64,000 nucleotides of DNA from Pseudocercospora fijiensis CIRAD86 (taxonomy: Eukaryota; Ascomycota; Dothideomycetes; Mycosphaerellales; Mycosphaerellaceae). Both the position numbers and the translations under genes were made by a program. Location of the stretch: the NCBI RefSeq assembly GCF_000340215.1, contig NW_006921543.1, positions 620,001-684,000 of the forward strand. Direction: 5' to 3'. Below are positions 1 through 35,558 of this stretch, one piece after another (positions within the stretch are counted from its first letter, which is position 1; each line of letters opens with the position of its first letter). The notes beneath the pieces are model-generated. The model ran no database searches. It saw only the letters and a list, made by a program, of their open reading frames with translations, and was not told the origin of the DNA.

Positions 1-62
1 AAGTACGGGAAGACTATAGCGAGAACGAGATATCGGAAAAGGAGGACTATTCGTAGTATATA

Positions 63-500
63 TAAAGGAAGGGGGTTCCTCGTAAAATAGTATCGAAAAA
101 CAAGGCGGCTTCGGCTAAAGTAGGAAAAAAAAGTAGGCGGACGAAGACTATCGCGAAGAAGAATTATTCTTCTATAAGGAAAAAGGGCAAACGCCGGCGC
201 TTTAAACCGGGTACTATTACCCTTCGCGAGATCCGGAAATTCTAAGAAAAAAAGGGGACTAAGCTTCTAATCCTTAAGGCTCCTTTCTAGCGACTCGTCC
301 GAGAAATTATATTAGATTTTAAGTCCGGTATGCGATTTACGGCTAAGGCGATTAGTATTCTTTAGGAAGCTACGGAGGCATTTCTTATAACCGAGTTAGA
401 GCTTTCTAACCTTCTTACTATCTATACGAAGCGGGTTACTCTTTAACAAAAAGATATACAGCTTCTAGCTAAGATTCGGCGTCGATTTATAGCGGAATAA
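63..500 (+). pseudogene. Histone H3-like gene, decayed copy A
   Basis: Read straight through, one frame gives a basic tail and then a full histone H3 fold with no indel from 195 to 500. Landmarks in order: FKPGT and LREIR (alpha-N), KAPF then a stop then RLVREI (alpha-1), DFKSGMRF (loop 1), a stop then EATEAF (alpha-2), YTKRVTL (loop 2) and QKDIQL (alpha-3). The internal stops are TAG/TAA exactly where H3 has Gln, so they are mutated CAG/CAA codons. The tail (63-194) is rich in Lys and Arg. Loop 1 has the H3 length, not the longer CENP-A length; there are two extra residues before KLLILKAPF. It cannot make protein now. The assignment to H3 is very strong. Whether the parent was a nucleosomal H3, a variant, or a transposon-carried gene is inference. 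Confidence 0.88.
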
Positions 501-1020
501 TTAGGATTTGTATTTAGTAACTAGACTAATCGCTTACCCGGCGAACGGCCTCTCTCGGGGCGTAAGCCCTTCGATGCCTTTTCCTTCTCCTTCTCTATTA
601 ACGCTCCCTAATTCTCTATTAATCGCATTGCTAAAGAATATCTATACTACGGCAGGCTTCCCTAGATAGGCCGGCTTTTTAGTAGGAGGAGGCTTCTTTC
701 TATATCCTTTTACCGGCTATATATGCTAGCTATACCTCTTATTTTAACTCCGCGCCCTGCCTAGATCTAGGCTACGAAGTAGAAACCTAGTATATATAGT
801 ATTATAGAGGTAGAGGAAGCCTTAATATATTAAGTAGAAGAGCTAGAGAGAGAACTTAGTTAAAAGTTCTTTCGTCGTCGAGCTAGTACTATACTCGTTG
901 CCCCTTAGCGAGCTATATCCTTTAGATAGGCGGCTATAGATGTCGCCTCGCGACTAGAGTCGCCTAGATAGTATATTATAGTCTATTTCTAAATTCTCTA
1001 GTAGGAACGCCGAGAATCTA
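501..1020 (+). pseudogene. Decayed ORF after H3 copy A; C-terminal part shared with TE-E antisense ORF
   Basis: The frame of the H3-like gene stays mostly readable beyond its last TAA (498-500), so this may be a fused C-terminal region or a separate gene. From about 807 the DNA aligns with 54,535 onward in TE-E: both encode a VEEA...EELEREL coiled-coil-like stretch, a Leu/Pro-rich part, and a similar end near 1,020. The N-terminal Cys motif of the TE-E ORF was not found here. No function is known to me. The shared block shows that this plus-strand cassette and the cassette inside TE-E have a common origin. Confidence 0.5.
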
Positions 1021-1290
1021 GTATTCTAAAAGTATATATTCTAGACATTTCCTATCTATTTTATCTTCTAGCTAGTTAGTCTAGTAGTATAGTTCTTAGC
1101 TACAAAAGACATAGTTGCTAGGTACGCTATTAGAGTCCCCGCTCCTCGAGCTATACTACCCTAGGTCCTAAGAACTCTAAGGCGCTATAATCGATAGGGT
1201 CTAAGAGGTCGTAGGTTTAATTCCTATACTAGTTATTTCTTTTTTTATAATTTTTAACTATCTGCTAATAGTATTGCTAAGTAGAATTTA
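1020..1290 (+). repeat. tRNA-like dispersed segment, copy 1
   Basis: This block matches 54,740-55,000 closely; 1,130-1,245 is nearly identical to 54,850-54,965. It contains a T-arm/B-box-like sequence at 1,214-1,224 (GGTTTAATTCC, a C-to-T variant of the box B consensus), flanked by a 5-bp stem. A run of T at 1,240-1,246 could act as a Pol III terminator. A D-arm-like CTAAGGCGC lies at about 1,176-1,185. I could not close an acceptor stem, so a functional tRNA is not supported. A SINE-like or tRNA-derived tail is possible. Confidence 0.45.
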
Positions 1291-1739
1291 CTAGATTCTC
1301 GCTATAAAGCGAGTCGCCGTTTTACTATACGGCGGATAGGTATTTCTATTTCTAGGCGAGAAAGCCGGTTCGGAATTTAATCGAACTACTAAAAAATACC
1401 TATATTATAGTAGGCTACCTTTATTACGCCGACTATTTACTAAAAGGAGGCTTTCGCCGTTTTCCTATACCGGCTATAAGTGCCGGCTATATTTTAAAGT
1501 TTGCCGTTCCTACCTCTTTTAGCCGTACCTACCTTCTTTGCTTGCTATAACGTTACTCTACTACGGGCTTACGCGAAGCTTACTTAGTTGCTTAGCGATA
1601 CCGCGTTACTACCCCTCTCGCCGTATATAATCTTCGTTTCGATACTTATACTTCTACGCTCTATATCTACTACCTCTACTATATCTCCGCTCCGCGCGCG
1701 CCTTTCTATACCTTCGTAACGCATCTTTTTACTAATTCG
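1290..1739 (+). other. Decayed sequence between the two H3-like copies
   Basis: This stretch is rich in TpA and CpG. It holds two small hairpins, near 1,294-1,311 and near 1,313-1,339. From about 1,481 a plus-strand frame gives an aromatic- and Leu-rich stretch ending in FYQFDDFYNSE-like residues near 1,760 (Q inferred from TAA). I do not recognise a family. It may be the 5' part of the second histone cassette. Confidence 0.3.
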
Positions 1740-2436
1740 ACGACTTTTATAATAGCGAATCTACTCGACTAAATTTAGAAGGGTCGTAAGAAGGGACCTA
1801 CCGCTACTTAGGGTCGTAATATAACTAGACCTAGTAGAAAGAGTACTATATATTTACGTAAGATAGCCGCTACCGCTACCGGTCGCGCTAGTTAAAAGCA
1901 AACTATAGGTAAGGCTCCGCGTAAGACGACGGCGGGCAAGACTCCGCGTAAGACGACGACGAGTGCTTCTACTACTAGTAGTAATAATCGTAGTAAGCGT
2001 CGATAGCGCCTAGGAAGTAAGTTTTCTCTATAGCCGGTAGCTATAGCTAGTAGCGTAGCCGGTAGCATAGCCGGCAGCGTAGCCGGCATCTTTACTCCTT
2101 TTTACTAATCCTTCTTTAGCCGTAGCCCTTTATAAGATTCGGAGGTATTAGAGGGGTAACAAGCTCCTTGTTCTAAAAGCTCCCTTCTAGCGACTTGTTC
2201 GCGAAATTGCCGTCTTCTATTAAGCCGATCTTCCCTTTTAGAGATCTGTAATCGAAGCCCTTTAAGAGGCTATAGAAGCCTATCTAATTCGCATCTTCGA
2301 ATATATATTTCTCTTCTACCTCTTTTCGAACTATACTAATGCTATTTTAGCTGTCTAGCTTATAGCTATTTACGCTAAGCGCATTACGATAATATAGAAG
2401 GATTTTATCGCCCTCGATTAGATTCTTGCTAGCTAG
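1740..2436 (+). pseudogene. Histone H3-like gene, decayed copy B
   Basis: The tail frame (from about 1,740) contains QKQTIGKAPRK and GKTPRKTT at 1,893-1,955, close to the H3 tail pattern, then a Ser/Asn-rich linker. The core resumes in another phase at 2,110-2,436. It shows KIRRY, a stop, KLLVLKAPF, a stop, RLVREIA, DLPF, EAL, a stop, EAIEAYL, AIYAKRITI and KDF. In-frame stops again replace Gln. About a dozen extra codons sit between the end of alpha-2 and loop 2, so it differs from copy A there. Copies A and B share LKAPF where canonical H3 has RKLPF, so they are relatives rather than independent captures. The phase change between tail and core (about 2,040-2,110) is an indel or a lost intron. 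Confidence 0.85.
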
Positions 2437-2760
2437 AATGTCTTTATTCGCTAGGGTAATAGGTAGCGTAGTTGTTCTTAGTGTCCTCTATAAGCGTTTC
2501 TATACGCAAAATGTAGCGCTATATAGCGCGCTCTATATACTCTCTAGGCATATATATATATAGTATAATATGCTTTCTTAGGCGTATAGAATTAAAGTCT
2601 TCGGAAATTCTATTAGTACTAGTCTTATAAAGGGCATGCTTTAAGTGTTAGAAACCGATAAATTCTATAGTTCGAACTAGCTAATCCTGTAGTTTCTTAG
2701 CAAACCGAACTAAACTAACCCGGAATTTTAGCTTAGCAAACTAACCTAACCTAACCCGAA
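2437..2760. other. Decayed spacer between H3-like copy B and the TE-A extra ORF
   Basis: No coding signal is visible. It includes a TA-rich stretch (about 2,548-2,572) and short CTAAC-type direct repeats at about 2,700-2,765. A boundary of TE-A could lie here, but I found no matching LTR at the other end. Confidence 0.3.
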
Positions 2761-5700
2761 CTACTACGGCGTCTAGAAGTAAATGTTTCCGTACTTATAG
2801 TTAAAGTTTTACGCGACTAGTATTAGATAATAGAGGTAGGCTTTCTATTCCTTTTCCGGAAATAGAGCGAAGATAAGCTAGCCGCTATCGACCTTAAGCT
2901 CGTAGAAGGCGGCATAGCGACGGATAAAATCTTTTTCTTATTCCTTCGATAGACGTAGCTTATCGCTAGGTATAATTCGACCTATATTCGCGTCGTAGAG
3001 GGCTATTATTATTCTCTAGAAATCGAGGCGACTCGTAAGGAGCCGGATTATAGCATCCGCTAGAAGTCCTTTAAGGGCCTTACCTACCTAGATAGCCGTA
3101 TCTGCGATCTATAGATCTTCGGAAGTTATAGTCTTACTCGAGTCTAAGTTGTCCTTACTAGGTGCTTTCTTCGACTTAGTCGATTTTACGGATAGAGCTT
3201 TAGTAGACTTAGGCTATCTAGCTGTAGCTTTCTCTAGCGCCTTCGTCGACTTAGTAGTTTCTATTAACTTAGTCGATTTCGCGGATAGAGCCTTAGTAGA
3301 CTTAGGCTGTCTAGCTATCGCTTTCTCTAGCGTCTCCGTAGACTTAGTAGATTCCGTTAGCTAAGCCTTAGTAGATTTAGCCTATACGGCTATTAGGGCG
3401 TTAGGCTTAGTCTTCTTCTTTGCCGGGGTCTTAGTAGATTTAGCCTTTTCGCTATTGTTAGTCTTAGTAGACTTAGCCTTTTTAGTAGTAGTCTAGTCCG
3501 GCGTAGGCGCCTCCTTACGCTTTCTAGCCTTCGAGGTAGAGGTAGCGGTCTATACTTTCGCAGCCTTTTAGGCTACTTTCTAAGCTTTTACGTTAGCCTA
3601 CTCTCGCGCTTTCTATTCTTAGAGCTTAGCCTTAATTTTCTCGGCTACCGCGGACATTTTTTAATCGATAGCTTTCTTCTACTTTATATAGTCGGGGTAT
3701 AGCGGCGTCGCCGGGCGTTAGTTCCTATCCTTCGTTATTCTCTTAGCCTTTTCCTTATAGTAGGTCGAAGGAATATCCTAAAAGATTATGCCTTAGGTAG
3801 TAGGCGTAAGGCTAAGCATTAGGTCTATAAGTAGAACTCGTAGGCCTAGCGGGAAACGGCCTAGCTGTATCTAGAATTTACGTATAACGCGCTCGAAATC
3901 CTTAATAGTATCGCTATATTTAGATTGCTACTTCTCGTCGTCTATAAGGGCCGCGATTAGCTATATATATATAGACCGCTATATTTTTAGTAACTCGCCT
4001 TAAAGTATAGGCGCTAGGAAAGGTCGTAGAAAGATCTCGAGTATAGACTTAAGGTCGTCGACGATTCGCTATTTTAGATCTCTCTAATAGGCGTAGAATA
4101 TGTCGGTTATTAATCTAGCGAAGGAATCTACTACGTCTAGGTAGCTTGCGAAATAGTACGCTCCCTTAGTACTCTAATATACTACTACGCTATAGGCGAC
4201 GGCGATAGGCGTTATCTCGCTATCGTAAATCTTATAAAAAGCCGTTACGTAAGCGAAACTCTCGCGCTCGTACCTTAGGATAGCGTAGTCCGGTATATTA
4301 AAGTTTTCCGGAATCTTAGGGGTATATATAATAGAGTTATCTATAGAGAAACTATTAGCGTTAATATTATAAAGTAGTTTATTACCGGCGGTCGCCTACT
4401 CGAGTAAGCGTATATTAGCGCTATAGTAGGGGTTGTTTAGTCCGCTTCGGCCTTTTTTTATCTATCTAGGAGGGTAGATCTCGCTAGTACTTTTCTAAAT
4501 CGCTTTAGGCTGCTCGCTAGGAAGAGGGGGGGGCGTACTACTAATTTACGTATTTCTTAAAACTATATATAGTATCTAGGTCGACGAGCGCTATTTTATA
4601 TTTATTAAGGTCGAAATACGATAGCTAGATAGAAGCGAGGTATGCCGCTAGTCCCTTAGATAGTATAGCGAGAAACTAATCGACTTGTAGTACTATATAA
4701 GCGCCGAGGATAGCTCCTATCCTCGCCTTAGTAGGCTTTTCCTCGTCGGCGTAGAAATCGTAGTTATCCTTAAAGGAGGCGAGGTCCGGCTAGAGGTAGT
4801 TACTATATACGTCGCAGTCCTTATCGTCCTTTTTCTTAAACTTTTTCTTATAGCGGTCGAGCTTAGCTTTTAAGGCCTTCTTAATATTAGCGAGGCGTAT
4901 AGCGCGCTCGCCCTCTGTCTCTAATTTAATCTATAGGGCGTTATAGTCCGATTTATCTCTAAGGCCTTCCTCCCTTAACTCCTTACGATAGACCTAGCGT
5001 CTAGCCTTAGTCGGTAAGCTATTATATAGCTTTTATTCGTAGAGGTCGAGGCGTTCGCGACCCTATTAATCGTAGGTATCGTAGTAGTATAGCGCGTCGG
5101 CGTTATACCTAGTCTCTAAGGTGTAATGTAAGCGATTTCTAAGAGCGCCGATTGTCTTATAGATCTAAGGCGTAGTAGTATACTCGATTCGAGGAGTACT
5201 AAAAGCTATATATCGCTCCGCGTAGATAGGAGCTACGGGTAACTACGGTATAAGAGACTTTTCTAGCCTACCGTTCGTTACGATCCTATATAGGAGCTTA
5301 TATTCGCGCCGAATTACACTATTAATAGAGCGCACTAGTATACTCGGTATATCTAAGATAGCGTTCGGCTTATAGCCGGCTCTATCGATATACGAGAGCA
5401 TATCGGAGAACCTTAGTACCTTGTTTAGGTACGGTATACGTAGGATTTCGCCTAGCTTAGATAGTGCGATAATAAGTCGCTTTATCTTAGGCGCCTATCT
5501 CTTAGTAGCCTTTTAGCCTTATCCTCTCTTTCCTTCGCCGTCGGAAGCCTCTTCCTTAGCCTCCTTATCGGCCTCTTCGTTATCCTATCCTTACTCTCTA
5601 CTATTAGTAGATATAGGCTACTCTACTACTTCTCCTCTATTACCTAAAGTAGTAGGCCGACTATCTTCGGGATTTTCGCTATCTATCGCGGCGTTCTTAT

Positions 5701-7857: not shown

Positions 7858-8054
7858 TGTAAGAAGGGTTATGTTAGCAGGTAGATAGGGTAGTAGTAAA
7901 TCAGTGTAGTATTCGATAGAGATCTAAGAGGAGAGGGAGGAGGGCAGGCTAGTTAGCCTAACGCTAAGCGCCAAGCCCTACCTAAGGCACTAAGACCCTA
8001 GCTTCACTCGGCCTAATTACATGCCAATTACGTGTAGCCTCTTTGGCTCTAACA
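7858..8054 (-). repeat. TE-B 3' LTR (197 bp)
   Basis: Begins TGTAAGAAGGG and ends CTCTAACA on the plus strand; closely matches 14,808-15,004. A purine tract (complement of CTTCCCTTCT, 8,059-8,068) sits just inside it, which makes it the 3' LTR of a minus-strand element. Confidence 0.93.
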
Positions 8055-9279
8055 CACGCTTCCCTTCTAAAGGCCGCGCCCTCGTAGCCTGTCTATGTTC
8101 CTATCTAATCTCTATTGCCGCTAACTTAGCAGGTCTAGTAAGCTGCTTAGCCCGCGCTAAATTGAACACTTAGCTACCTAATTATATAACTATGTTAAAC
8201 CTCACTTTTAACATAATGTCTAACTCTAACTGCGCTATCCTTGTATATAATAAGGTAATATATATCTATAAGAATTAAGGACTATCGACCAATTATAATA
8301 CGAGCGCGTCTTCCCTACTATAATAGGTAGACGTACGAGGTATTATAGCCCTGCCTCCGTTCTAAGTAATGTCGTACCGAGTTCTTTGCGTCTACTCTTA
8401 AAAGACCTAGTAATGTCCGCTTCCGAGGGTTGTTCTTATTATTACGAGGGCTATTATTGTTCGTAGTTTCGCTAGCCCCAATTGGTTAGGTTTAGCAGCC
8501 TTCAATTGTTAATCTTATCTTATCTTTTAAAAAAAAAACACAGCTCGTCTAGTTTCTATAGGTAAAGGCTATTATAAGTGTAGTAGTAGAGGTTCGCCTC
8601 GCTTAAAGGGTTAGATAGATCGAGGAGTAACCTATTGTCCGCAAGATCGACCCTAGCTAGCTTAGCTCTATAGTTTTGCCCTTAGTTAGTCTATTAGTCG
8701 CTCAATCTTTTAACTTAGTTAAAGTTTTGACTTGGCCTTAAAGTTTTAATTAAACCTTTAATAGGCCTAAAGCTTTAATCAAAGTTTTAATTAAAGGTGC
8801 CTTAGGCTCGTAGTGTAGGTAAGGTTGTGTTTATAGGCGTAGCGACAACAGCAAGTAATGTTAATAATAGTAGCGCTAGTCGTCTTAGCGCTAACTTTAC
8901 CTTCTTTAACTAACAATAACTCGGCAATACCGTTACTAACATAGCGGTGTCCTTCCTTTCTTAAATAGCAACACACCCCGCAACACTGTTACTAATATAG
9001 TCGCGCCGGCTACGCCGGCCGCGCCGATTGCCTAGGCCTCGAGGCCTCGACGGAGTAAGGGAATAAGAGGGGGACCTATAGGGCGCGTTAGTAAAGAGGT
9101 AGAATCCTTAAAAGAGTAGGCAATTAGTTAACGCGTCGTAGCGCGCTTGTTAACACTCGGTGCGCGTTTACTATAGTAGTGTAGTCTTATTGTCCTTTGT
9201 TGCTAACAATTGCTTGCTTCTAATTAGTTAGCTAATAGCACCCCGGGGGTAGCATTAATCCTAGGCCTTAGTAGTAACA
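8055..9279 (-). other. TE-B 3' untranslated region
   Basis: About 1.2 kb between the pol stop and the 3' LTR with no recognisable ORF. It contains the polypurine tract, an AT-rich stretch of repeated AAAGTTTTAA-like units at about 8,715-8,800, and a GC-rich palindromic patch near 9,000-9,050. The same region exists in TE-C, where it is partly diverged. Confidence 0.6.
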
Positions 9280-12200
9280 TTATAAGCTTTTAGCCTTCTT
9301 CTTGTTCTTTACGCTAGTCTAATACTCATCTAACAACTCGGTTATATCCTTAAAGGAGTCTTTAGCTTCCTATAAGTCCTATTCTAGTAAATAGCCTTGC
9401 TATCTTAATAGGTACTCCTTCTTGCCTTATCTAGTCCGATAGTTTAGGATACGTTCTACAGACTACAGTTCTTCGCTATTAGCCAAGACTTCTTCTAACT
9501 TAGTAGGCGCTTTATCGCCTTCGCGTTAGTAGTACGGTTTAAGGAGGGAGATATAGAAGGTGTTATAGATAGTATAATAAGGAGGAAGCTATAACTAATA
9601 GGCCTATGCGGAGGAGCCCTTAACTTCTCGAATACGGAATGGACTAATGTATCTTAGTGCGAGCTTAGGCCTTGTTTTGCCGTTAGGTAATAGGTGCTTA
9701 CGGATGCGGAGGTTCTTAGTGCTTAGCATAACTATGTCGCCTTGCTTAAAGGTTATTAGTGTATAGTGTTTGTCGTAATAGGCCTTCTAATAGGCCTAGG
9801 CTTTTGCTAGTTTGTTAGCTATCTTAGCGTAAATCTCTCGCATCTTTTAAACTCTCTTAATAGCCGCTAGTGTCTTAGGTGTTAGTACTTAACACGCTTC
9901 CCTTTCCTTGCGCTCGGCCTCGAGCGAGGTAAATAGGTCTTATAGCAGCGCAGGGTTGCTTCCTATTATAGCGAAATAAGGTAACACTCTAGTAGATAAG
10001 TAGACACTATTATTGTATACGAATTCGGCTAGTTATAGGAGATTGACCTAGTTATTAGGGTTCTTATTAATATAGCTACGCAGGTACTACTACAGGGTGG
10101 CATTCTGCCTCTCTGTTTAACCGTCAGTCTGTAGATAGAAGGCTGTTAATAGCCGATGCTTTAGTCTTAGCTGTAGGTATATCTCGCTCTAATAATAGGA
10201 TGTGAATGTCGTGCCCCGGTTAGAGACTATCCCCTTAGGGGTCCCCTAATAGGTATAGAAGATGTTGCTCTATAGAGCCTCTACTATGTTAATAGCAGTC
10301 TAATCCTTCCGTGCCGGGATGTATCGAGCGCCTTTAGTAAACCGATCTACTATAACAAGGATAGCATCGAAGATGTCCTTGCTGCCCCTACGTTTAGCAG
10401 GTAGAAGGCCTATAATAAAGTCTATTATAAGCTCTGCAAATAGCTTATAAGGGATTGGTAATAAGGACAACTCGCTAAAAGGCTAATGTTTTAGTGCCTT
10501 AATACGTTAATATACGGCATACGTGTTAACGTATTCCTTTATATCCCGCTTACTATTTAGCTAGTAGTATATGCGCGATAGTAGCTCGTGCGACCTCTCT
10601 ATGCTATAGTAACCGGCAAGCTTACTATTATAGTGTCGCTTAAGAAGCTCTTGTCGGATCGAATATTTAGCGGGGATATAGTATCTGCCCTTGAACTTTA
10701 AATAACCTTTATTATCGATCGACTAGTTGTTACTCTTACTAGATCGAGTCTTTCGCCTACTTACAAGCTTGTCTATACGTTTAGTAGCAAAGGCGTCCCT
10801 CTACTAAGCCCGTAATAGCTTATCTATAAACGATTAACTATCCCTATTTGCAAGGTTATTTAATAGCACCCTCGCTATTAAACGAGGTACGCATTATATA
10901 CATCTAATAGCACTAGCAGCCGGATTAACTGCATTAGTGCTATCGCTGTTACTATATATTACGATGTCGACTAGGGAGTTATTATAACTTCTCCTGTCTG
11001 TGTCCTTAGCCCTTGCCTTAACACGCACTATTAATATAGCAAGAGCATTAATATGCTTTAAGCCGTCGCGGAGTCCGGTAAGCCGCTTATCCTACGCTTG
11101 CTTATTAACAATACGGGCTATAGCGATCTTATACTACAGGGTTAGAAACAAAGAATTAATGTGCTAGGTCTCGCTATTGTAATTAGGCCGCCTCGATAGG
11201 CTATTAGTAGGGTTGCTTACGCCTAACCGATATAATACATCAAAATCGAACCCGGCGAGGTAGACGGCCTATCTAGCCTATCGACCTATAACCCTAGTAA
11301 CCTTAGTAATGCTACGGAGGTTGTTATAGTCCGTATAGACCTGTATTATATATTAAGCCCTATCGAGGTAGTGCCTCTAATGCTTAAAGGCCTCGACAAT
11401 AGCTAGGAGCTCTTACTCGTAGGTCTCGTAGCGACGTTTAGCATTAATTATCTTCCTCGAGAAGAAGGCAATCGGGTGCTAGTAATAGTCCTTATCCGAC
11501 TGTTGTAATATAATAGCGGATATAGCAAACTATAAAGCGTTAGTCTCAATACGAATTAGTTTGCTTAGTACGAAGTAGTATAACAAGGGGACTTTAGTAA
11601 AGCGTTGCTTTAGACCGTTAAAAGCGGCTTAAGCCTTGTTAGTCTATCTGAACTCTCTAGTCGGGTTAGCCTTAGTTTTAGTAAGCTTAGTTAGGGGCAT
11701 TGCGTGTCGTAAATAGCTCTTAATAAAGCGACGATAGAAGTTAGCAAAACCTAGGAATAATTGAAGCTCCTTAATACTAGTAGGCGTTAGCTACTTAGTA
11801 ATAGTCTTAATCCGGTTAGGATTAGCCTTAATACCCTTAGTTAATACGAGGAAGCTAAGGAAGGATACCTCCTTAGTAGCGAAGGTGCATTTAGAAGGCT
11901 TGCAATACAGTCTATAGGTCCGTAGGCGGTCGAGGACCTTACGTACTACGGCCTAGTGTTCTGTAATATTAGGTGAATGTGTGTAGACTAGGATGTCATC
12001 TAGGTAAACTATATAGAGATAGTCTAATAGGCCCGAAAGGGCCCGATTAATGTAGGACTAGAACGTTGTAGGGGCATTAGCTAAGCCGAATAGTATAACT
12101 AAGTACTCGAAATGCCTATAACGAGTGCGAAAGGCTGTCTTCTATTTATCGCCCTTACGAATACAGATGCGGTAATAGGCGTCCTTAATGTCTAATATAG

Positions 12201-13186
12201 TATAGTAATAGGTACTAGAAAGGCGGTCGAGGGTCTTATTAATAAGCGGAAGTAGACAGCGGTCTTTAATAGTAATAGCATTGAGCCTACGATAATCGAC
12301 ATAGAGGCGCAGGCTACTATCTTTCTTTAGTACGAACAGGATAGGGGCACCGGCAGGGCTATTACTATACCGAATTCGACTATTGGCTAGGTTTTCCTCT
12401 AGGTACTTACGCAATATAGCAAGCTCTCGTTTACTAAGGTTGTAGAGGGGTCTAAAAGGGACCTCTTTGCCCTCTATAATATTAATCTTATAATCCGTCT
12501 CTTTAAATATAGGCAATGTCGATACTAAGTGGTGTTTAAATACATTAATGTAGGTCTCTCGAATAGGCTCTAGTATACGAGCAAGCTAATTAGGGTCTAT
12601 GCTATTAGGGGGCACAGGTTTATCGTTATTACTACCGAGCAGGTCGGCAGTTAGATTAGCTAAGGCGGGAGTCAGGTTGCTAATGAATAGGACCCTAATA
12701 TTATTAGGACACTCGCTAATGTCGATGTATTTAATGTCCTCCTTCCTAGCGATTCTAAATCGCTATTGTTGACTGCCTAAGTCTATAACTATAGTATAGT
12801 ACTTAAGAATAGGGTTACTAATAACAATGTCGGATAGGAGGCTGTCTATATCTACCGCGTAGGCAGTAAAGTTTAGTATGCGTTCATTTCCGAGGTCGTC
12901 CTTTAGAGCTATATAGACATAGTAGGCTCCGTAGGTCAAGTGCCGAGCGTTATTAAACTAAGCAAGGGTTGGCAGGTTAGTCCTAGGCAATTGTCGAAGG
13001 TCTAATTACTTAGCTAGGCGATGGCTAATGAGGGCACTAACTGAAGTTCCTAGGTCTAGCGTAACCCTAGTTCTATAATTGTTGCTATACGAGTCCGATA
13101 CGAGATAGGTGCGTATAATAGCTAGCACAATGTCAATAGTCTTACGCCGCACAAGGCTAACAGTTAGTGCGGCGCTTACTCTTTTT
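9280..13186 (-). pseudogene. TE-B pol: protease, RT, RNase H, integrase, chromodomain
   Basis: Domains from right to left: retropepsin with DLGTS-like active site (about 13,050), RT with an open stretch at 12,516-12,142 and an intact YLDD at 12,006-11,995, RNase H (about 11,560-11,300), integrase HHCC and core (about 10,700-10,050, with IVDRFTKGARYIP and TDGQTERQN motifs), and a chromodomain ending near 9,300. The chromodomain has VERILNYRTRQGKKEYL followed by RQQGYL, its aromatic Trp codons mutated. The protein ends in a Lys-rich tail (KNKKKAKSL) and a TAA at 9,282-9,280. The chromodomain would normally target integration to modified chromatin. Many Gln/Trp stops make it dead. Confidence 0.9.
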
Positions 13187-14590
13187 TCGAATAGTTAGAA
13201 GGGCTAATAGGGGTAGCATTAGCGGCTAAGAGGTGCTTTCGGTGTTTAGCAGTAGCACGGTCGACTCGGGCCTAGTCTCGAGGCCTATTATATTAGCCTA
13301 GTAAATGAGTAGTACTATTACAATTGAAGCACTTGTATCTAGTTAGGGCACCGCTAGGTCCGCTCGAATTGGTGCTAGAATTGGATAAACGATTAGGGGT
13401 ATATAGAAATAAGCCCCTTCCTTGTCCTCTTCCTCGCTAGGGGTTTCTACTATAGTATCGGCCCCTGCCTCTTCCACGTTAGTCGTTACTGTTTCTATTG
13501 TTAGTAGTGTTGGTTTAGGGAGTACCTCCTTAGTTTCTACCGCGGCTACGGTTAGTAGATAGTCGTATCTTAGATTCTAACCGTTGCTATAGCTGTACTA
13601 TACGCTCTATAGTCTCTACTTCAACTATAAATTGAATGCGTATAAGATTGGCCTATTCGAACATACGGCGGCGGTCTAATTCAAGGACTAGTTCCTATCT
13701 TAGTTTAGGTCGTATCTTAGATATCTAGATAGAGTCGGTCTTAGGTAGCAAATCGTCCTTAAGGGTCTTTAGATAGGCCTCGAAGGATCGAGAGGTTTAG
13801 TCGGCCTTTTGCTTAGTACGTAGGTATTAGTCTTAGGCGTGCTACTAGCGTAATATAGGGTTGCTAAGGGTATTTAGTATAATAGTCTTGTAATCCTGCT
13901 ATTAAACAGCGGTCTAGTCGTAAAGGGAATCAAAATAGTTATCCTATATACGCTTAGGGTCACCGTTAATGTACTGCATAGTATAGACAACTAAGGAATA
14001 GTTATCTAGTAGCGCTCTCGGTGCATTGCGCTAGTTGAGCTTACAGTTACGAATATAGTTATTGTATTGCTTTCGACTAGAGCTATTAAACACGGTGCAG
14101 TCCTTAAGTTTAGCATCCTTCTTCTAAACTAGGACTAATAGTGAGGACGGCCCTACTATCGGCTTAGTATTAGTTGTTAGGGCCTCCTAAAGGCGACGAA
14201 TCTTAAGGAGATTATCCTTCAGCTATTGTTCTTAGCGTAGAGCAGCGAGCCTGTTTTAGGTAGCTTCCTAAAGTCTCGCTACTAGCTAGGGCCCAAAGGC
14301 TGGTTAGCTATATCGTCGGTTAATAATGTTGTTAAGAATGTCGTTAACAGGCAATTCTAGATCGTCGCCTAGAACTACAGGTTCTTCGGCAGGCCTAGTA
14401 GTAGGCTCTTTAGCAGGTACTTTAGCAGGTACTTTAGTAGGCACTTTAGTAGGTACTATGCTACTAGCGTTGTTATTGCTAGCGCTGCTAGCGGCAGCAC
14501 GGTTGTTGTTGCTTCGTAATAAACCGGCTATTGTGATAAGGGGTAGCACTAATAATGTATTATAGCCCCTTATAGTACGGATATAGCGGA
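13172..14590 (-). pseudogene. TE-B gag with CCHC zinc knuckle
   Basis: The C-terminal end has CFNCNSTTH followed four residues later by Tyr in place of Cys (about 13,330-13,290). This is a CCHC knuckle whose last Cys (TGC/TGT) became TAC/TAT. Upstream is an Arg/Gly-rich stretch (about 13,560-13,400), then capsid-like sequence. The N-terminus (about 14,560-14,310) is Asn/Ala/Ser-rich with a repeated KVPAKVP-type segment. I do not trust any GTG as start; the frame extends upstream of 14,549 and the true ATG is probably mutated to ATA. Gag is in a different phase from pol, with an A6 run at the junction. Confidence 0.78.
13182..13187 (-). promoter_or_regulatory. Possible gag-pol frameshift site (A6 run)
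   Basis: On the minus strand gag reads TCG AAA AAA GAG TAA while pol is read one base back (AGA GTA AGC). The same six-A run and phases occur in TE-C at 33,742-33,747. A -1 shift on this run would join the ORFs. The gag TAA could also be a mutated CAA. Confidence 0.45.
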
Positions 14591-14796
14591 ATTAGCGAGT
14601 ATCGGCCTAATGTGCTTGACTTAGTATAATAGGCCGTATAGAAGGCCTTGCTTGATAATTAGTACGGTTGTTTTAGTAGAATAGTACGTATAGGTCCCGT
14701 TCTTCGGGCGCAATATAGTTAAATCGATAGTTTTTCGTAGCTATACCGCTAAAAGCTTGAAATAAGGACTATCTAGCTACTGCCCTTAAAGGGTAG

Positions 14797-14807
14797 ATCG
14801 AATACTA
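14797..14807 (-). promoter_or_regulatory. TE-B primer-binding site, self-priming type
   Basis: These 11 bases lie directly against the 5' LTR (start 14,808) and are an exact inverted match to 14,857-14,867 inside the LTR. That is the arrangement by which Tf1-type elements prime reverse transcription from their own folded mRNA instead of a tRNA. Confidence 0.75.
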
Positions 14808-15004
14808 TATAAGAAGGGTTATGTTAGCAGGTAGATAGGGTAGTAGTGAATCAGTATAGTATTCGATAGAGATCTAAGAGAAGAGGGAGGAGGGTAGGCT
14901 AGTTAGCCTAACGCTAAGCGCTAAGCCCTGCCTGAGGCACTAAGACCCTAGCTTTACTCGGCCTGATTATATGCCAATTACGTGTAGCCTCTTTAGCTCT
15001 AACA
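14808..15004 (-). repeat. TE-B 5' LTR (197 bp)
   Basis: Partner of 7,858-8,054, same length, ends CTCTAACA followed by the GTATT duplication. The TG start has become TA on this copy. Confidence 0.93.
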
Positions 15005-15009
15005 GTATT
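15005..15009. repeat. TE-B target-site duplication, right (GTATT)
   Basis: Second copy of the 5-bp duplication. Confidence 0.95.
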
Positions 15010-18000
15010 AGGCTACCTAGGTTTCCGTAGTCTACTAGCATTTGCCCGGAAGGAGCAAGACTCGTTTAGATTTCTTATAGGTAACTATAAGGAGTATATC
15101 GAAGCCTTCGTTAGTTAGTAGGAGCCCTACAATCTAGTCTGCTATTTAGACGTCTATAGGAAGTCTATACTTCGAGTCTATTAGGTTAAGCTACCCGTAA
15201 GGCTTATACCGAGTAGGTTAATTTAAATTATATATATTATACTAGTCGATATATTATTCTAAATATCGGCGGCAGTTTCGGATATAGAAACTAGCGTTAA
15301 CTCGATCGAGGGTACGCTAGAATCCCGTATAATGCCTAAGGTTATATGCTATCTTAAAGATCTCGTAAGTAAGGCTAAAAGGAATATAAAGCTACAAATA
15401 GAGTAAGACTAGGTCGACGTAGTAAATAAGGCTGTCTTCCCGAAAGAATCTAATACTATATAGGGACTTTAGGTCTATAGGAACGTCGTCTAGCTTTTCG
15501 AGCGCATTCTGTAGGCTACGGGCGGCTATATCCTTCGAAGGGCGGAGGGAAGGCGGCTTTAGGATATAGCTAGGCGTCGTTTCTAGATAGACCTATAGTT
15601 GCGTACTATCGTCCTTATCCTAGGCTATATCGAGGTATACGGCCTTACGTTTAAGCTCTTTATTACGCTTACGCTTTTGTCTCCTCCTTTCTTAGCGGTT
15701 TAATATCTTCTTAAGCTAAGGTTGTTATTCCTACCTATACGCTATTTCGATAGACTAGAGGACTAAAAGTAGTCGTCTCTATAGTCTATCTTCCTAGTAT
15801 ACCTACCTAAGTCGCGTTTTAAATTTATCGAATAGGGATATAACTATTTCGACGTAGCAGCTAGGTTCCCCTCGTATACTCTAGAAAAAGGTAGGAATCT
15901 TATCGTAGGCTTAGTATTTATATCTATCGAGTCGCGAAAGAAACAATTCTGTATAGTCGATCCTAGATAGGGATATAACGTTAACTAGCGCTATAGTAGG
16001 GAGGAGAGGAACGTTTAGACAAAAATTTTAGAGGGCTAGAGATCTCTTTTTGCGATTTAGGCGAAAGGATTTAATGTTTGCTACGACCGCTAGGCGATTC
16101 GGTACATTTTCTATATCTCCTCCCGATCCGTATATAGCGTATACTTCTTTAATGTCGCTCCTGCTTTCGCCGATAGGCGTATAGTTAAAGGGCATTATTA
16201 TTATCGCCTACGTCTACGTTCTCGTAAATATAGCTAGAATCTCGTCGAGGCCACTTATATTAAAGTTATTTCAATCTAGGGAAATTACGCCCTATAGTCG
16301 GGAGAGTATATCTAGGGCTATATAATTCCTACCCGGCCTATAAATAATATCGAGATTTGCGAACTATAAAATATATACCGCGGCTTAGATAATTCGGCGG
16401 TTAAGGCTAGTAGTAGATACCGTCGTCGCGATTTACGTCTTCTTAGCTATCGCGGTAACTATACTATAGTCGGTAACTATAATTGTCTTCGCCGCCGAGT
16501 CGACTATATAAGAGGCCCTTTTAATTGCCTATACTACTCCGAACAATTCGAGTTCGGTAGGCTAGTAACGGGCATCGGCTCCCGTTAGTATATAGCTAGT
16601 AAATCCTAAGACCTTAAGTCTATTACGTAGAAATTGCTTAGATCGTCTTAACTAGGTAGTACTATCTACGAAATCCGAAACTATATCGTCCCTACGAGTT
16701 ACTAGTTCGGGCTCTTCGTATTTAATGTCTAGGTTTCCGTAAACTTAGTAGTATATTATCCTAATTCCGAACTCCTTAAATATATCGACGTCTATATAGA
16801 GAGTAGACTTAGGATCGAAGTACTAGAGGAACCCTTAGTACTCTTCCGACTATATTAACTATATAATTTCCTTAGCGGCGTCTATTTCGCTAGTCTAATA
16901 GAGTTGCGCGCCCCGTATTTAAGCGCGTCGCTTCCTACCTTTCGTCTAAGTAGCCTAGTAGTCCTTTATAGCCGCGACTTTAGCTTACTATAGCGGGAGG
17001 GTAATTTTGCCGAAATATAGTATAGTAGACCTAAGATAGCCTACTAATCCGAGGTAGTGCTTAAGCTGTTTAGCGTTAGTAGGTTTCTCTAATTCCCGCA
17101 ATGCTATAAGTCGTTCTACCTACGTCGCGAAGCCTTTTCCGTCTATCTTTCTACCTAGCATTTATATAGACGGGAAACCTAAAAACGCTTTTTCTAGCTC
17201 TAGGCTAAATCGTATATTATCTATCTTTATAAATACGCGATCGAGCAATTTCTAATAAGATTCTAGGTCTACCGAGCCTAGAACTATATCGTTAATATAC
17301 CCGTTTACCGCGTCGCCGAATTTACGTAGAGTGTTATTAAGTAGTCTCTATATGTATTAGACGCTATTATAGTAACCTATAGCGGCGACCTTTAGGTATT
17401 CTTGTCCTCGTATAGCATTAACTATAAATTTCTAACGATCTTTCTCCGCGACGGCGAACTAGTAAAATATAGATCGTGCATTTATAACTAAAATATACTT
17501 ATAGCCGCGTAATTTCGTAATAATATCGTCCTAGAGTAGCAACGGGTAGGTGTCCTTTTAAGATATACTATTAAGGCCTCGAATGTCGATAACTACGCGC
17601 GGTTTTCGATACGTAGTACTATTATTGCGAAACAAGGTTCTCTAGACTACGAAGACTAGCTAGGCTAGCGGCGATAGCTTTTTACTATACGCTATTTTGC
17701 CTTAAGTATAAAGCTTATCGAATTGCTTATTTACCTCCGCATTATCCTTTTCGGATATACGGTAGACCTTACTACTAAATTTCTTATTTTCCTATCCCGA
17801 CTTTAGTAGGAGTTCTAGCTATTTGTCCTCGGGAAGCCTAATTATAGTACCTCGATCCGTCTATAGCTAAGGGAATTTTTCTACTATAGACTTAATACGT
17901 AAGGCTATAGTAGCGTCTAGATTTACTACGTAGATCGTTACTCCCGCCGAGGTTATTACGGTAGCTATCCCCGTATCTACTAAGATCTTTATAGGATCGG

Positions 18001-28406: not shown

Positions 28407-28602
28407 TATAAGAAGGGTATATTAGTAGGTAGATAGGGTAGTAGTAGGTACAGGTAGTATTCGATAAGGAGCTAGGAGGAGAGGGAGGAAGGCAGGCAAG
28501 TTAGCCTATTGCTAAGCGCCAAGCCCTGCCTAAGGCACTAAGACCCTAGCTTTACTTAGCCTAGTTATATACTAATTACGTATAGCCTCTTTAGCCCTAA
28601 TA
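28407..28602 (-). repeat. TE-C 3' LTR (196 bp)
   Basis: Starts TATAAGAAGGG and ends CCCTAATA (the terminal CA now TA). The polypurine tract complement lies at 28,607-28,616. Preceded by ATAAT. Confidence 0.92.
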
Positions 28603-29839
28603 TACGCTTCCCTTCTAAAGGCCGCGCCCTCGTAGCCTGTCTATAGTCTACGACCTCTATTGCCGCTAACTTAGCAAGTCTAATAAGCTGCTTAGCCCGC
28701 GCTAAATTAAACACTTAACTACCTAATTATATAACTATATTAAACCTTACCTCCAAACAACACAATGTATAACTCTAACTGCGCTATCTCTATATATAAT
28801 AAACTATAAAGTAATATGTATCTATAAGAATTAAAGGCCTTCGACTAATTATAATACGAGCGCGTCTTCCCTACTATAATAGGTAGACGTACGAGGTATT
28901 GCAGCACTATCTCCGTTCTAAGTAATGTCGTATCGAGTTCTTTGCGTCTACTCTTAAAAGACCTAGTAATATCCGCTTCCGAGGGTTTATCCGTTCCGAG
29001 GGTTGTTCTTATTGTTACGAGGGCTATTATTTACTGTCGTAGTTTTACTAGCCCTAATTAGTTAGGTTTGGCAGCCTTTAAGTGTTAACTAATTATATCT
29101 TTTCAAAAAACTCAGTTCTTCTAGTTTCTATAGGTAAAGGCTATTATAAGTACAGTAGTAGAGGTTCGCCTCGCTTAAAGGGTTAGATAGATCGAGGAGT
29201 AACCTATTGTCCGCAAGATCGACCCTAGCTAGCTTAGCTCTATAGTTTTGCCCTTAGTTAGTTAGTCTATTAGTCTACTTAATCTTTTAAGCGGCTTAAA
29301 GTTTTAACTTAGCCTTAAAGTTTTGATTAAAGTTTTAATTAAGAGTGCCTTAGGCTCGTAGTATAGGTAAGGTTGTGTCTATAGGCGTAGTAACAATAGT
29401 AAGTAATGTTAATAATAGCGGCGCTAGTCGTCTTAGCGCTAACTTTACCTTCTTCTAATTTCCTTCTTCGACTAATAATATACTCCGTAACACCGTTACT
29501 AACATAGCCGCGTTAGCCGCCGGCATACTACTAGCTCGTAGCGCGACACTATTACCTTTATTACCGTTATTTGTACGCGCGCGTACATCGCCCTTGTCGA
29601 ACGCTTAGGTCTCGAGGCCTCGCTAGAATAAAGAATAAGAGAGGGACCTATAGGGCGCATTAGTAAAGAGGTAGAATCCTCGAAAGAGCAGTCGATTAGT
29701 TAATAGTTGTAGCGCGTTTGTTAACGCTCGGTACGTATCCGTTATCGTAGTGTAGTCTTGTTGTTCTTTGCTAACAATTGCTTGCCTCTAATTAGTTAGC
29801 TTAATAGTACCCCGGGGGTAGCATTATTCCTAGGCGACA
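28603..29839 (-). other. TE-C 3' untranslated region
   Basis: Equivalent to 8,055-9,279 in TE-B. It has the polypurine tract and the AAAGTTTT-type AT-rich stretch near 29,300, and no ORF. Small differences from TE-B include a short repeated GAGGGTT segment near 28,980-29,000. Confidence 0.6.
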
Positions 29840-32800
29840 TTATAGGCCCTTAGCCTTCTTCTTATTCTTTACACTAGTCTAATACTTATCTAATAACTTA
29901 GCTATATCCTTAAAGGAATCTTTAGCCTCCTATAAGTCCTATTCTAGTAAATAGCCCTGCTATCTTAGTAGGTACTCCTTCTTGCCTTACTTAGTCTAGT
30001 GCTTTAGGATGCGTTCTATAGACTATAGCTCTTTACTATTAGCCAAGACTTCTTCTAACTCGGTAGGCGCTTTATCGCCTTTACGCTAGTAGTATAGTTT
30101 AAGGAGGGATACGTAGAAGGTGTTATAGATAGTATAATAAGGTAGAAGCTACAACTAATAGGCCTATGCGGAGGAGCCCTTAACTTCTCGAATGCGGAAT
30201 AAGCCAATGTATCTTAGTACGAGCTTAGGCCTTGTTTTGCTATTAGGTAATAGGTGTTTACGGATGCGGAGGTTCTTCGTACTTAGCATAACTATATCGC
30301 CTTGCTTAAAGGTTATTAGCGTATAGTGTTTGTTATAGTAGGCCTTCTAATAGGCCTAGGCCTTTGCTAGTTTATTAGCTATCTTAGCGTAAATTTCTCG
30401 TATCTTTTAAACCCTCTTAATAGCTGCTAGTGTCTCTAGTACTTAACGCGCTTCCCTTTCCTTACGCTCGGCCTCGAGCGATAGTAGGTCTTGTAGTATA
30501 GCAGCATTCTAGCCTATTATAGCTATATATAGTAACACCTTAGTCGATAAGTAGACACTGTTATTGTATACGAATTCAGCTAGTTGCAGGAGGTTAACCT
30601 AGTCGTTAGGGTTCTCGTTAATGTAACTGCGCAGGTACTGCTATAGAGTAGCATTCTGCCTCTCTATTTAACCGTTAGTCTATAGATAGAAGGCTATTAA
30701 TAGCCGATGCTTTAGTCTTAGCTACAAGCAAATCTCGCTCTAATAGTAAGATATTAGTGTCGATCTACGATCGGACACGATCCCCTTAGGGGTTCCCTAA
30801 TAGGTATAGAAGATGTTAGTCTATAGCGCCTCTGCTATATTAATAGTAGTCTAATCCTTGCGCGCCGGGATGTATCGAGCGCCTTTAGTAAATCGATCTA
30901 CTATAATAAGGATAGTATTATATACATCCTTGCTGCCCCTACGCTTAGTAGGAGGAAGGCCTATAATAAAGTCTATTATAAGCTTAGCAAACGGCTTCCT
31001 AGGAACAGGAAGTAAAGACAACTCGCTAAATAGTAAGTGCTTTAGTGCTTTAACTCGCTAGCATACTGTATAGGTCTATATATACTCCTTTATATGCCGC
31101 TTACTATTTGGCTAGTAGTATATGCGCGATAGTAACTCGTGCGACCTCTCTATACTATAGTAACTAGCGAGTTTACTATTGTGGTGCCTCTTTAAAAGCT
31201 CTTATCTAATCGATTGTTTAGCGGGGATATAGTATCTGCCCTTAAACTTTAAGTAACCTTTATCGTCGATCGACTAATTATTGTTACTCTTACTAGATCG
31301 AGTCGCCCGTCTACTTACAAGCTTATTAATACGCTCGACAGCAAAGGCGTCCCTCTACTAAGTATGTAATAGCTTATCTATAAACGATTAACTATCCCTA
31401 TTTGCAAGGTTATTTAATAGCACCCTCGCTATTAAACGAGGTACGTATTATATATATCTAATAGCACTAGTAGCCGGAACTACTGCAACCTCTTCTATAG
31501 TACTGTCGCTATATAGGCTATTACTATAGATAGCAATGTCTTCAATCGAGTTATTATAGCTCGAGCGATCTACGTCCTTTCTTTTAACGTATACTAGAAG
31601 AACGACAACTCCGCTATAGTATTTATTGCCGCCGCGGGGTCCGGAAGTCCGCTTATCCTACGCTTGCTTATTAATAATACGGGCTATAGCAATCTTATAC
31701 TACAAGGTTAGAAACAAAGAATTAATATATTAGGTCTCGCTATCGTAATTAGGTCGCCTCGATAGGCTATTAGCAGGGTTGCTTACGCCTAGCCGATATA
31801 ATACATTAAAATCAAACCTAGCGAGGTAGACGGCCTATCTAGCCTATCGACCTATAACCCTAGTAACCTTAGTAATGCTACGGAGGTTGTTATAGTCTGT
31901 ATAGACCTAAATAGTGTGCTATGTACTATCGAGGTAGTGCCTTTAATGCTTAAAGGCCTCGATAATAGCTAGGAGCTCTTACTTGTAGGTCTCGTAGCGA
32001 CGCTCTATATCGATCATTTTTCGTAAAAAGAAGGCAATCGGGTGCTAATAGGTGTTATTAGCCTATTGTAATATAATAGCTAATATAGCGAACTGTAAAG
32101 CGTTAGTCTTAATTCGGATCTGCTTGCTTAGTACGAAATAGTGCAACAAGGGGACTTTAGTAAAGCGTTGCTTTAGACCGTTAAAAGCGGCTTATGCTCT
32201 ATTAGTCTATTTGAACTCTCTAGAAGGGTTAGCCTTAGTTTTAGTAAGTTTAGTTAGGGGTATTATATACCGTAAATAGCTCTTAATAAAGCGGCGGTAG
32301 AAATTAGCGAAGCCGAGGAACGATTAAAGCTCCTTAATAGACGTAGGAATAGGCTATTTAGTAATTGTTTTAATCCGGTTAGGGTTAGCCTTAATACCCT
32401 CGGTTAATACGAGGAAGCTAAGGAAGGACACCTCTTTAGTAGCAAAGGTGCATTTAGAAGGCTTGTAATATAGGCTATAGGCCTATAGGCGGTCGAGGAC
32501 TTTACGTACTATAGCCTAGTACTCTACAATGTTAGGTAAATAGGTGTAGACTAGGATGTTATCTAGGTAAACTATACAGAGGTAGTCTAATAGACCTAAT
32601 AGGGCCCGATTAATATAGGACTAGAATGTTATAGGGGCGTTCGCTAGCCTAAATAGTATAACTAAGTACTCGAAATAGCTATAGCGGGTACGGAAGGCTG
32701 TTTTCTATTTATTACCCTTACGGATGCGGATGCGATAGTATACATCCTTAATATCTAATATAGTATAGTAGTAAGCGCTAGAAAGGCGATCGAGGGTCTC

Positions 32801-33746
32801 GTTAATAAGCGGAAGTAGATAGCGGTCTTTAATAGTAATAGCATTAAGTCTACGGTAATTAATACATAAACGTAGGCCGCTATCCTTCTTTAGTACGAAC
32901 AGGATAGGTGCACTAGTAGGGCTGTTGCTATACCGAATTCGACTATTAGCTAAGTTTTCCTCTAGGTACTTACGTAATATAGCAAGCTCTCGTTTACTAA
33001 GGTTGTAGAGGGGGCTAAAAGGAACCTCCTTACCCTCTATAATATTAATCTTATAATCCGTCTCTTTAAATATAGGCAATATCGATGCTAGGTAGTGTTT
33101 AAATACATTAATATAGGTCTCTCGGATAGGCTCTAGTATGCGAGCAAGCTAATTAGGATTATTAGGGGCTATAGGTTTATCGTTATTACCGCCGAGCAAA
33201 TCGGCAGTCGGATTAGCTAAGGCGGAGGCTAGTGTTAGGTTGCTAATAAACAGGACCCTAATATCGTTAGGGTACTCGCTAATGTTAATGTGTTTAATAT
33301 CCTCTTTCCTAGCGATTCTAAATCGCTATTATTAACTGCCTAAGTCTATTACTATAGCATAGTACTTAAGAACAGGGTTGCTAATAACAATATCGGATAG
33401 GAGGCTGTCTATGTCTACCGCGTAGGCAGTAAAGTTTAGTAGGCGTTTATTTCCGAGGTCGTCTTTTAGAACTATAGGAACATAGTAGGCCCTATAGGTT
33501 AAGTGCCGAGCGTTATTAAACCAAGTAAGGACTAGCATGTTAGTCCTAGGCAATTGTCGGAGGTCTAATTGCTTAGCTAAGCGATAGTTAATAAGGGCGC
33601 TAACTGAATTTCCGGGGTCTAGTATAACCTTTGCCTTATAGTTAGTATCGGGCCTAGATATAAGACAGGTACGTATAATAGCTAGCACAATGTCGATAGT
33701 CTTACGCCGTACAAGGCTAATAGTTAGTGCGGCGCTTACTCTTTTT
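29840..33746 (-). pseudogene. TE-C pol: protease, RT, RNase H, integrase, chromodomain
   Basis: Same organisation as TE-B pol. A protease segment is open at 33,688-33,332 and an RT segment at 33,079-32,705. The RT catalytic box at 32,569-32,558 reads YLDN, the second Asp codon GAC having become AAC, while TE-B keeps YLDD. The RNase H, integrase and chromodomain regions follow to a TAA at 29,842-29,840. Stops are again mutated Gln/Trp codons, and the protein is dead. Confidence 0.88.
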
Positions 33747-35553: not shown

Positions 35554-35558
35554 ATAAT

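What the first reader, a model, noticed from the sequence alone, without database searches (positions are those of the whole stretch)
63..500. Histone H3 fold hidden in RIP-decayed DNA, readable through its stops
One frame carries every structural landmark of H3 (alpha-N, alpha-1, loop 1, alpha-2, loop 2, alpha-3) over 102 codons without an indel, and the in-frame stops fall on Gln positions. No ORF caller would report it. A histone gene in a repeat block implies it was once multicopy, since RIP acts on duplicated DNA. I know of no described fungal retrotransposon family carrying a core histone.
Basis: partly seen in the sequence, partly recalled or inferred. Interest (0 to 1): 0.86.

Follow-up and report, generated by a model that had tools for sequence, protein, structure and literature searches.

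The report
Decayed hAT transposon carrying histone H3
The window opens inside a mutation-ridden copy of a hAT-type DNA transposon that carries two histone H3-like genes; several hundred such copies lie in this genome, very likely that of the banana fungus Pseudocercospora fijiensis, and the phenomenon was published in 2019, but likely introns in one H3 gene and weak signs of selection suggest that the histones may have been working parts of the transposon rather than dead freight.

Summary
In detail: window 66-497 reads as histone H3 through four in-frame stops. Reproduced here: the window copy is an 8.6-kb element ending at 2775, with inverted ends and an 8-bp target duplication; genome-wide 372 first-H3 and 375 second-H3 matches. 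Not found in what I read of that paper: (1) the second H3 is interrupted by two intron-like stretches; the published '16 AA insertion' is one of them (48 bp, 16 of 16 copies aligned), so 'no introns, hence retrocopy' likely fails for that gene; (2) RIP-proof transversions between two subfamilies suggest constraint on the H3s (0.46 of neutral, P=0.008; 0.61, P=0.03 with the second H3's tail), like the transposase pieces (0.51), but not against a third subfamily; (3) 373-bp MITEs share the ends. No element H3 examined is stop-free. Known phenomenon; the cargo-gene reading is new and unproved.

The parts
1..2775 (+). Right-hand part of an 8.6-kb hAT-type element copy (genome C12:614177-622775; its left 5,824 bases lie upstream of the window)
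   Evidence: Alignment to other copies and reading of the ends
66..497 (+). H3-I: first histone H3-like gene, uninterrupted frame with four internal TAA/TAG stops; a fifth at 498-500 ends the frame
1788..2016 (+). H3-II amino-terminal tail exon (start approximate) with KAPRK-like motifs; a 27-bp unit varies in number among copies
2017..2119 (+). H3-II intron-like stretch A (GTAAGT ... CTAAT ... TTTAG), 103 bp here, 79-116 bp in the 14 of 16 copies where the pattern matches; same phase as, and one codon from, the second intron of the intact host H3
2122..2301 (+). H3-II histone-fold exon, first part (VAL...IFE)
2303..2350 (+). H3-II intron-like stretch B, 48 bp (donor GTATGT in copy L037, CTAAT, TTTTAG): read as the published '16 AA insertion'
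   Evidence: PMC6710886
2353..2448 (+). H3-II histone-fold exon, last part (V.LIAIYAKRITII...)
2756..2775 (+). Right terminal inverted repeat
2776..2783 (.). Target-site duplication GAAGTAAA (its partner lies just left of the element, outside the window)

Best explanation
Window 1-2775 is the right-hand part of a hAT-type DNA transposon copy bearing RIP-type mutations, two histone H3-like genes, terminal inverted repeats and an 8-bp target duplication, one of several hundred related copies in this genome, and both H3s may have been kept as working genes of the element before RIP likely destroyed each copy. Shown here: the ends, the duplications, the two H3-like genes, the copy numbers, the RIP-type pattern of differences, and stops in every element H3 examined. 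Inferred: a hAT transposase encoded upstream (pieces recognisable, all broken) moved the element by cut and paste; subfamilies diverged for a long time as working elements; a burst of near-identical copies followed; RIP then changed CpA to TpA in each copy separately. Inferred with less certainty (about even): the H3s were under selection in the working elements, as the transposase was, and so would have made H3 variants; the second H3 was likely taken up as genomic DNA with an intron near the host position. What such an H3 would do, perhaps keep the element's own chromatin open, is a guess.
For: Ends and 8-bp duplications in 4 of 4 copies read to both ends and in 3 of 3 MITEs. Copies: 913 end matches against 5 for the reversed control, MITE ends included; 372 H3-I and 375 H3-II matches against 0 control. 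hAT: the piece at element-D 3003-3518 matches an intact 805-aa hAT protein of the same genome at 55.5 bits; best of 200 shuffles 32.0. RIP: copies B, C and D differ pairwise by 255-284 RIP-type changes, 23-27 other transitions and 1-10 transversions over 9.9 kb. Of 150 scored H3 places 148 carry at least four stops (read from its list); the two stop-free ones are the ordinary H3 and CENP-A genes. H3-II has at least 6 stops in its fold exons in 16 of 16 copies. Constraint: H3-I plus the H3-II fold exons, window copy against L034, 19.0 of 51 transversions synonymous (expected 0.215; ratio 0.46; P=0.0076); four transposase pieces, copies A and D, 23.0 of 72 (0.51; P=0.0076); shifted frames of these two comparisons 0.89-1.16. 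Indels in H3-I among the three copies compared are 6, 12 and 21 bp; none in the H3-II fold exons. Dhillon et al. 2019 describe the same family.
Against: The constraint step is thin. The pooled figure leaves out the H3-II tail; with it the ratio is 0.61, P=0.03. H3-I alone is not significant (6.5 of 20, P=0.26), the H3-II tail alone shows none (2.0 of 15), H3-II fold exons alone 12.5 of 31, P=0.02. Against a third subfamily (L048) the ratio is 0.71 (P=0.24) and 0.85 (P=0.52), and in the latter a shifted frame (0.68) scores lower than the true one. The significant copy pairs share one subfamily split and are not independent. Two further upstream pieces tested were not pooled: one shows no constraint (5.5 of 32, ratio 1.04), one has 4 transversions. 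The dimerisation domain stays below Pfam's cut-off (14.3 against 21.4 bits), Pfam gave no hAT hit over cut-off, two of four transposase pieces do not align in order on the intact hAT, and a protein-set search with one stretch found nothing. Splicing was not tested. No intact relative was found, so expression cannot be shown.
Confidence: 0.8

Rival explanations
1. Passive transduplication, as published: a host H3 transcript was captured by a hAT transposon, amplified as dead freight and mutated by RIP; divergence of the H3s is drift.
For: Published reading of Dhillon et al. 2019. The constraint signal is weak, weaker with the H3-II tail and absent with the third subfamily. Element H3s are far from the host gene (53-60% identity for H3-I, 56-78% for H3-II over the fold segment, seven copies each). 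H3-I shows no intron in its frame.
Against: H3-II is interrupted by two intron-like stretches (by pattern 14 of 16 and 16 of 16 copies), which a transcript would not carry. H3-I and H3-II both persist in three subfamilies, and between two of them their ratio is like that of the transposase pieces.
Confidence: 0.4
2. The 48-bp stretch in H3-II is a coding insertion of 16 residues, as published, not an intron.
For: It is a multiple of three and has no stop in copy D's frame; the published paper reads it so.
Against: It begins with GTATGT in copy L037, holds CTAAT and ends in TTTTAG in 16 of 16 copies; the pattern occurs at no other place in four full copies and is expected 0.005 times per element and strand in a first-order model; passing over it lines the flanking exons up with host H3 by eye.
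Confidence: 0.1
3. The introns of H3-II were gained inside the element after capture of a transcript.
For: Stretch B has no counterpart in the intact H3 or CENP-A gene (splice sites by eye). A second match to the stretch-A pattern lies at 918 of copy A and holds the same 12-bp repeat.
Against: Stretch A lies one codon from, and in the same phase as, the second intron of the host H3.
Confidence: 0.4
4. Local pseudogene of the genome's own H3, or a retrotransposon that carries H3.
For: Only the H3 resemblance.
Against: Inverted ends, 8-bp duplications and hundreds of copies on many contigs; the intact H3 lies on contig 6, beside an H4-like gene by eye.
Confidence: 0.01

Closest known systems
H3-carrying hAT family of Pseudocercospora fijiensis (Dhillon et al. 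2019, PMC6710886)
   Same: 20-bp terminal inverted repeats, 8-bp target duplications, 9.5-9.9-kb full elements, one or two H3-like sequences each, CpA-to-TpA bias, intact three-exon H3 on scaffold 6, hundreds of copies (784 H3-like there; 372 plus 375 pattern matches here).
   Different: The window copy belongs to an 8.6-kb subfamily. I read two introns in the second H3 (paper: none, and a 16-residue insertion), find weak signs of constraint, a sub-threshold dimerisation-domain match (paper: not identified), and 373-bp MITEs with the same ends (the word 'MITE' does not occur in its main text).
H3L-carrying hAT of Pyrenophora tritici-repentis (Manning et al. 2013, PMC3538342)
   Same: hAT transposase plus an H3-like gene that is neither canonical H3 nor CENP-A, with tail insertions.
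   Different: 5.6 kb, nearly identical copies, ESTs for the H3-like gene; Dhillon et al. report no similarity between its sequence and these elements. I had no sequence of it to compare.
Canonical histone H3 and CENP-A of the same genome (L001, L026)
   Same: H3 fold; phase and near position of one intron (H3).
   Different: Element H3s are 53-78% identical to host H3 over the fold segment; the compared H3-I and H3-II pieces lack the CENP-A loop-1 insertion.

Membership tests
hAT superfamily DNA transposon | Terminal inverted repeats | tested here: met
   TAGACCCCG-type ends at both sides of 4 of 4 copies read to both ends; 913 pattern matches against 5 control
hAT superfamily DNA transposon | 8-bp target-site duplication | tested here: met
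   4 of 4 elements and 3 of 3 MITEs, read by eye
hAT superfamily DNA transposon | hAT transposase core region | tested here: met
   One of four pieces matches an intact hAT protein of the same genome at 55.5 bits (25% over 168 residues), 200 shuffles at most 32.0; no Pfam hAT family reached its cut-off
hAT superfamily DNA transposon | C-terminal dimerisation domain PF05699 | tested here: inconclusive
   14.3 bits, E 0.035, cut-off 21.4; 24.3 bits against residues 666-697 of the 805-aa hAT
Dhillon 2019 H3-hAT family | Two H3-like genes within 9.5-9.9-kb elements with 20-bp inverted repeats | tested here: met
   Copies B, C, D: 9,922-9,952 bp; two histone stretches in B; the window copy itself is 8.6 kb
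Histone H3 | Histone fold above the curated cut-off | tested here: met
   100.4 bits with stops as Gln, 91.5 bits in the six-frame search
CENP-A | Loop-1 insertion as in the genome's own CENP-A | tested here: not met
   H3-I of copy L034 and the first H3-II fold exon lack it
LTR or other retrotransposon | Reverse transcriptase or long terminal repeats in the element | tested here: not met
   No Pfam hit other than histone at E up to 0.01 in six frames of copy B's L033 part and three frames of its left 2 kb; the three opposite frames there were not run; inverted ends instead
Functional element-encoded H3 | Expression and incorporation into nucleosomes | not testable with these tools
   No stop-free element copy among 148 scored; no transcript data

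The most novel reading that the evidence does not exclude
This hAT lineage made its own histones: two diverged H3 variants, one with spliceosomal introns, kept by selection alongside the transposase while subfamilies split, so the transposon would have acted on chromatin, its own or its host's, and the published picture of a passively copied host transcript would be wrong.
Probability: 0.4. Interest if true: 0.75.

Novelty: already known. Interest (0 to 1): 0.4.

Why it matters
The amplified, RIP-killed H3 is published, so the finding as given is known. If the element H3s were genes of the transposon under selection, they would be a rare case of a mobile element equipped with its own nucleosome part; an H3-like gene in a hAT of another Dothideomycete is also in print (Manning et al. 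2013). It would make testable whether transposons change chromatin to escape silencing. The intron reading also changes how one of the genes was taken up.

Tried and rejected
Rejected: retrotransposon, local pseudogene, CENP-A (see tests). Tried without result: Pfam on nine frame translations of copy B (six of its L033 part, three of its left 2 kb; the three opposite frames of the left 2 kb not run) found nothing but histone at E up to 0.01; Pfam on five pieces gave only sub-threshold hits; the protein search with the H3 read-through gave 180 hits, the 120 listed at 42-60% identity, none an evident close relative; six fungal ones that I aligned look like CENP-A; the protein search with a transposase stretch scored none of 6,354 candidates at E up to 0.1; the codon comparison across the whole element gave no single clear frame; PF05699 rang at 47 places of the genome, which I did not map against the elements. 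Of the transposase pieces on the intact hAT protein, the mid and HA pieces have their best matches out of order. The spacer between the two H3s does not align between subfamilies (45-58% identity in most windows); I first took this as a sign of constraint on the H3s, but part of the spacer is a repeat that also lies at 54599-54886, so I do not use it. In the pooled transposase count I used four of six upstream pieces tested; the two left out are told under evidence against. Literature: five paper searches (one search listed 15 of 132) listed PMC6710886 and PMC3538342 as the reports of H3 in a fungal hAT; nothing in what I read of them tells of introns in the second H3, constraint on the element H3s, or MITEs. 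PMC3562529 (transposable elements of Mycosphaerella fijiensis) and PMC3017866 (DeRIP) were seen in the listing only. Supplements were not open to me.

Full report
What is there. Window 63-500 on the + strand is a single frame that reads as histone H3 through in-frame TAA and TAG codons. With these read as Gln it scores 100.4 bits against PF00125 (E 1.1e-28) and E 4.7e-30 against a solved H3.3. A six-frame search of the window's own genome, which reads through stops and counts them, gives the same place 91.5 bits. The four internal stops stand at Gln positions of the genome's intact H3 (two by the alignment, one, one by eye).

Copies. The window is C12:620001-684000 of a 73.9-Mb assembly in 30 contigs. 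PF00125 gave 772 candidates, of which the best 150 were scored and matched; 148 carry at least four stops and 2 are stop-free (read from its list). The two are the ordinary H3, three exons by eye and with an H4-like gene beside it (L001), and a CENP-A gene (L026). In the copies aligned, H3-I has at least 4 stops (44 rows, some loci fetched twice) and the H3-II fold exons at least 6 (16 of 16 loci). Pattern counts: first H3 372, second H3 375, each against 0 control matches.

The element. Seven copies were fetched, four of them with their left sides. They define an element of 9,922-9,952 bp (copies B, C, D) and a related shorter subfamily of about 8.6 kb to which the window copy belongs (copy A, 82% identical to B over 5.4 kb). 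Ends are TAGACCCCG-type inverted repeats; the target duplications are GAAGTAAA (A), CAAAGTAC (B), CCTAAGAA (C) and AGTTTAAT (D), 4 of 4. The window copy spans C12:614177-622775, so window 1-2775 is its right part. The end pattern with up to 2 mismatches occurs 913 times against 5 for the reversed control. Some of these ends belong to 373-bp MITEs with the same ends and perfect 8-bp duplications, 3 of 3 read; their middle matches the element only over 32 bp in 2 of 3.

Transposase. Pfam found only histone in nine frame translations of copy B at E up to 0.01. A piece upstream of the first H3, element-D 3003-3518, aligns to an intact 805-aa hAT protein of the same genome at 25% over 168 residues (131-295), 55.5 bits, while 200 shuffles reach at most 32.0. 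The dimerisation piece aligns weakly to residues 666-697 of that protein (24.3 bits) and stays below Pfam's cut-off (14.3 of 21.4 bits); the two other pieces have their best matches out of order. A protein-set search with one stretch found nothing. With the ends and duplications I file the element as hAT, as the paper does (it reports DUF659).

RIP. In the 10 kb of L031 around the finding CpA and TpG are at 0.14 and 0.15 of expectation and TpA at 1.68. Copies B, C, D differ pairwise by 255-284 RIP-type changes but only 23-27 other transitions and 1-10 transversions over 9.9 kb; A and B differ by 565 transversions in 8,226 aligned bases. So by this RIP-proof measure the subfamily split is old and the three copies of one subfamily are young, each likely mutated on its own.

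Known or not. Dhillon et al. 2019 (PMC6710886; abstract, Results, part 1 of 2 of the Discussion, Methods and found passages read) report this family in Pseudocercospora fijiensis: 784 H3-like copies in 471 hAT elements, 20-bp repeats, 8-bp duplications, 9.5-9.9 kb, RIP bias, intact H3 on scaffold 6, and similar events in five further species. Manning et al. 2013 (PMC3538342; found passages and part 1 of 2 of section 20 read) report an H3-like gene in a hAT of Pyrenophora tritici-repentis, with ESTs. The phenomenon is therefore already known.

What I add: introns. The paper infers capture of a transcript from absence of introns and reads a 16-residue insertion in the second copy. In 16 copies that I aligned (L031-L037 and L046-L054, of about 375), the second H3 is interrupted twice. 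Stretch B is 48 bp in 16 of 16, starts with GTATGT in copy L037 (first two bases GT in 3 of 16, AT in 13, a RIP-type change), holds CTAAT and ends in TTTTAG. Stretch A is 79-116 bp, GTAAGT...CTAAT...TTTAG in 14 of 16 by pattern; the other two show the same donor with a changed branch motif (L032) or acceptor (L047). Its length is 79, 91 or 103 bp in 11 of 14 (12-bp steps) and not a multiple of three in 13 of 14. Apart from one further stretch-A match at 918 in copy A, the two patterns occur only there in four full copies, against 0.005 (B) and 0.02 (A) expected per element and strand from 200 first-order random sequences. Stretch A is in the same phase as, and one codon from, the second intron of the intact H3. 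Splicing was not tested. If these are introns, the second H3 was likely captured as genomic DNA, or gained introns later.

What I add: constraint. Transversions are immune to RIP. Between the window copy and L034, the first H3 plus the second-H3 fold exons have 19.0 of 51 synonymous against 0.215 expected (ratio 0.46, P=0.0076); four other copies of that subfamily against the window copy give 0.48-0.50 (P 0.014-0.016), and L051 against L034 0.51 (P=0.013); these pairs are not independent. Four transposase pieces give 23.0 of 72 (0.51, P=0.0076). Shifted frames of these comparisons give 0.84-1.16. Against this: with the second-H3 tail added the ratio is 0.61 (P=0.03); the first H3 alone is not significant (P=0.26) and the second-H3 tail shows nothing (2.0 of 15); the third subfamily gives 0.71 (P=0.24) and 0.85 (P=0.52), the latter with shifted frames at 0.68 and 3.03; two further upstream pieces, not pooled, show no constraint or have too few changes. 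H3-I indels among the three copies compared are 6, 12 and 21 bp; the H3-II fold exons have none. Against one representative of each, H3-I and H3-II are no closer to each other (46-60%) than to host H3 (53-60% and 56-78%) over the fold segment, so two separate H3s likely predate the subfamilies.

Mechanism. Most likely a hAT element with its own transposase carried two H3 genes, was mobile for long enough for subfamilies to split with both H3s in frame, then burst and was silenced by RIP. I put the hAT, H3 and RIP part at above 0.9 and the cargo-gene step at about 0.4-0.5.

Noticed in passing
L058 (C1:8853279-8853651), L059 (C2:581713-582085), L060 (C1:10656734-10657106): 373-bp MITEs with the element's ends (84-97 bp each side, 82-90% identical) and perfect 8-bp target duplications; four such 373-bp pairs stand in the 100 places listed.
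   Followed up: yes
L032 (C17 copy), second H3, last exon: The sequence runs from the H3-II last exon into a MITE-like end; alignment to the window copy resumes about 380 bases later, as if a MITE had inserted into H3-II.
   Followed up: partly
window 7867-15046 and 28415-35595: Two roughly 7.2-kb related stretches, each bounded by 230-bp direct repeats about 6,950 bases apart: LTR-retroelement-like.
   Followed up: no
window 53750-54049 and 60301-60600: 300-bp direct repeat, 95% identical, 6,551 bases apart.
   Followed up: no
window 880-1167 and 54599-54886: Repeat in the spacer between the two H3s with another copy at 54.6 kb; a tRNA-like 3' part near 1190-1250 by eye, but ARAGORN finds no tRNA in the window.
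   Followed up: partly
window 36637-38331, - strand: 564-aa open frame that looks RCC1-like by eye, in the GC-rich stretch 36-39 kb.
   Followed up: no
element copies, e.g. copy D 921-960, 2920-2933, 8263-8287, 8891-8915; stretch A: A TAGCCGGYAGC-type repeat scattered in the element on both strands, in variable number inside stretch A.
   Followed up: partly
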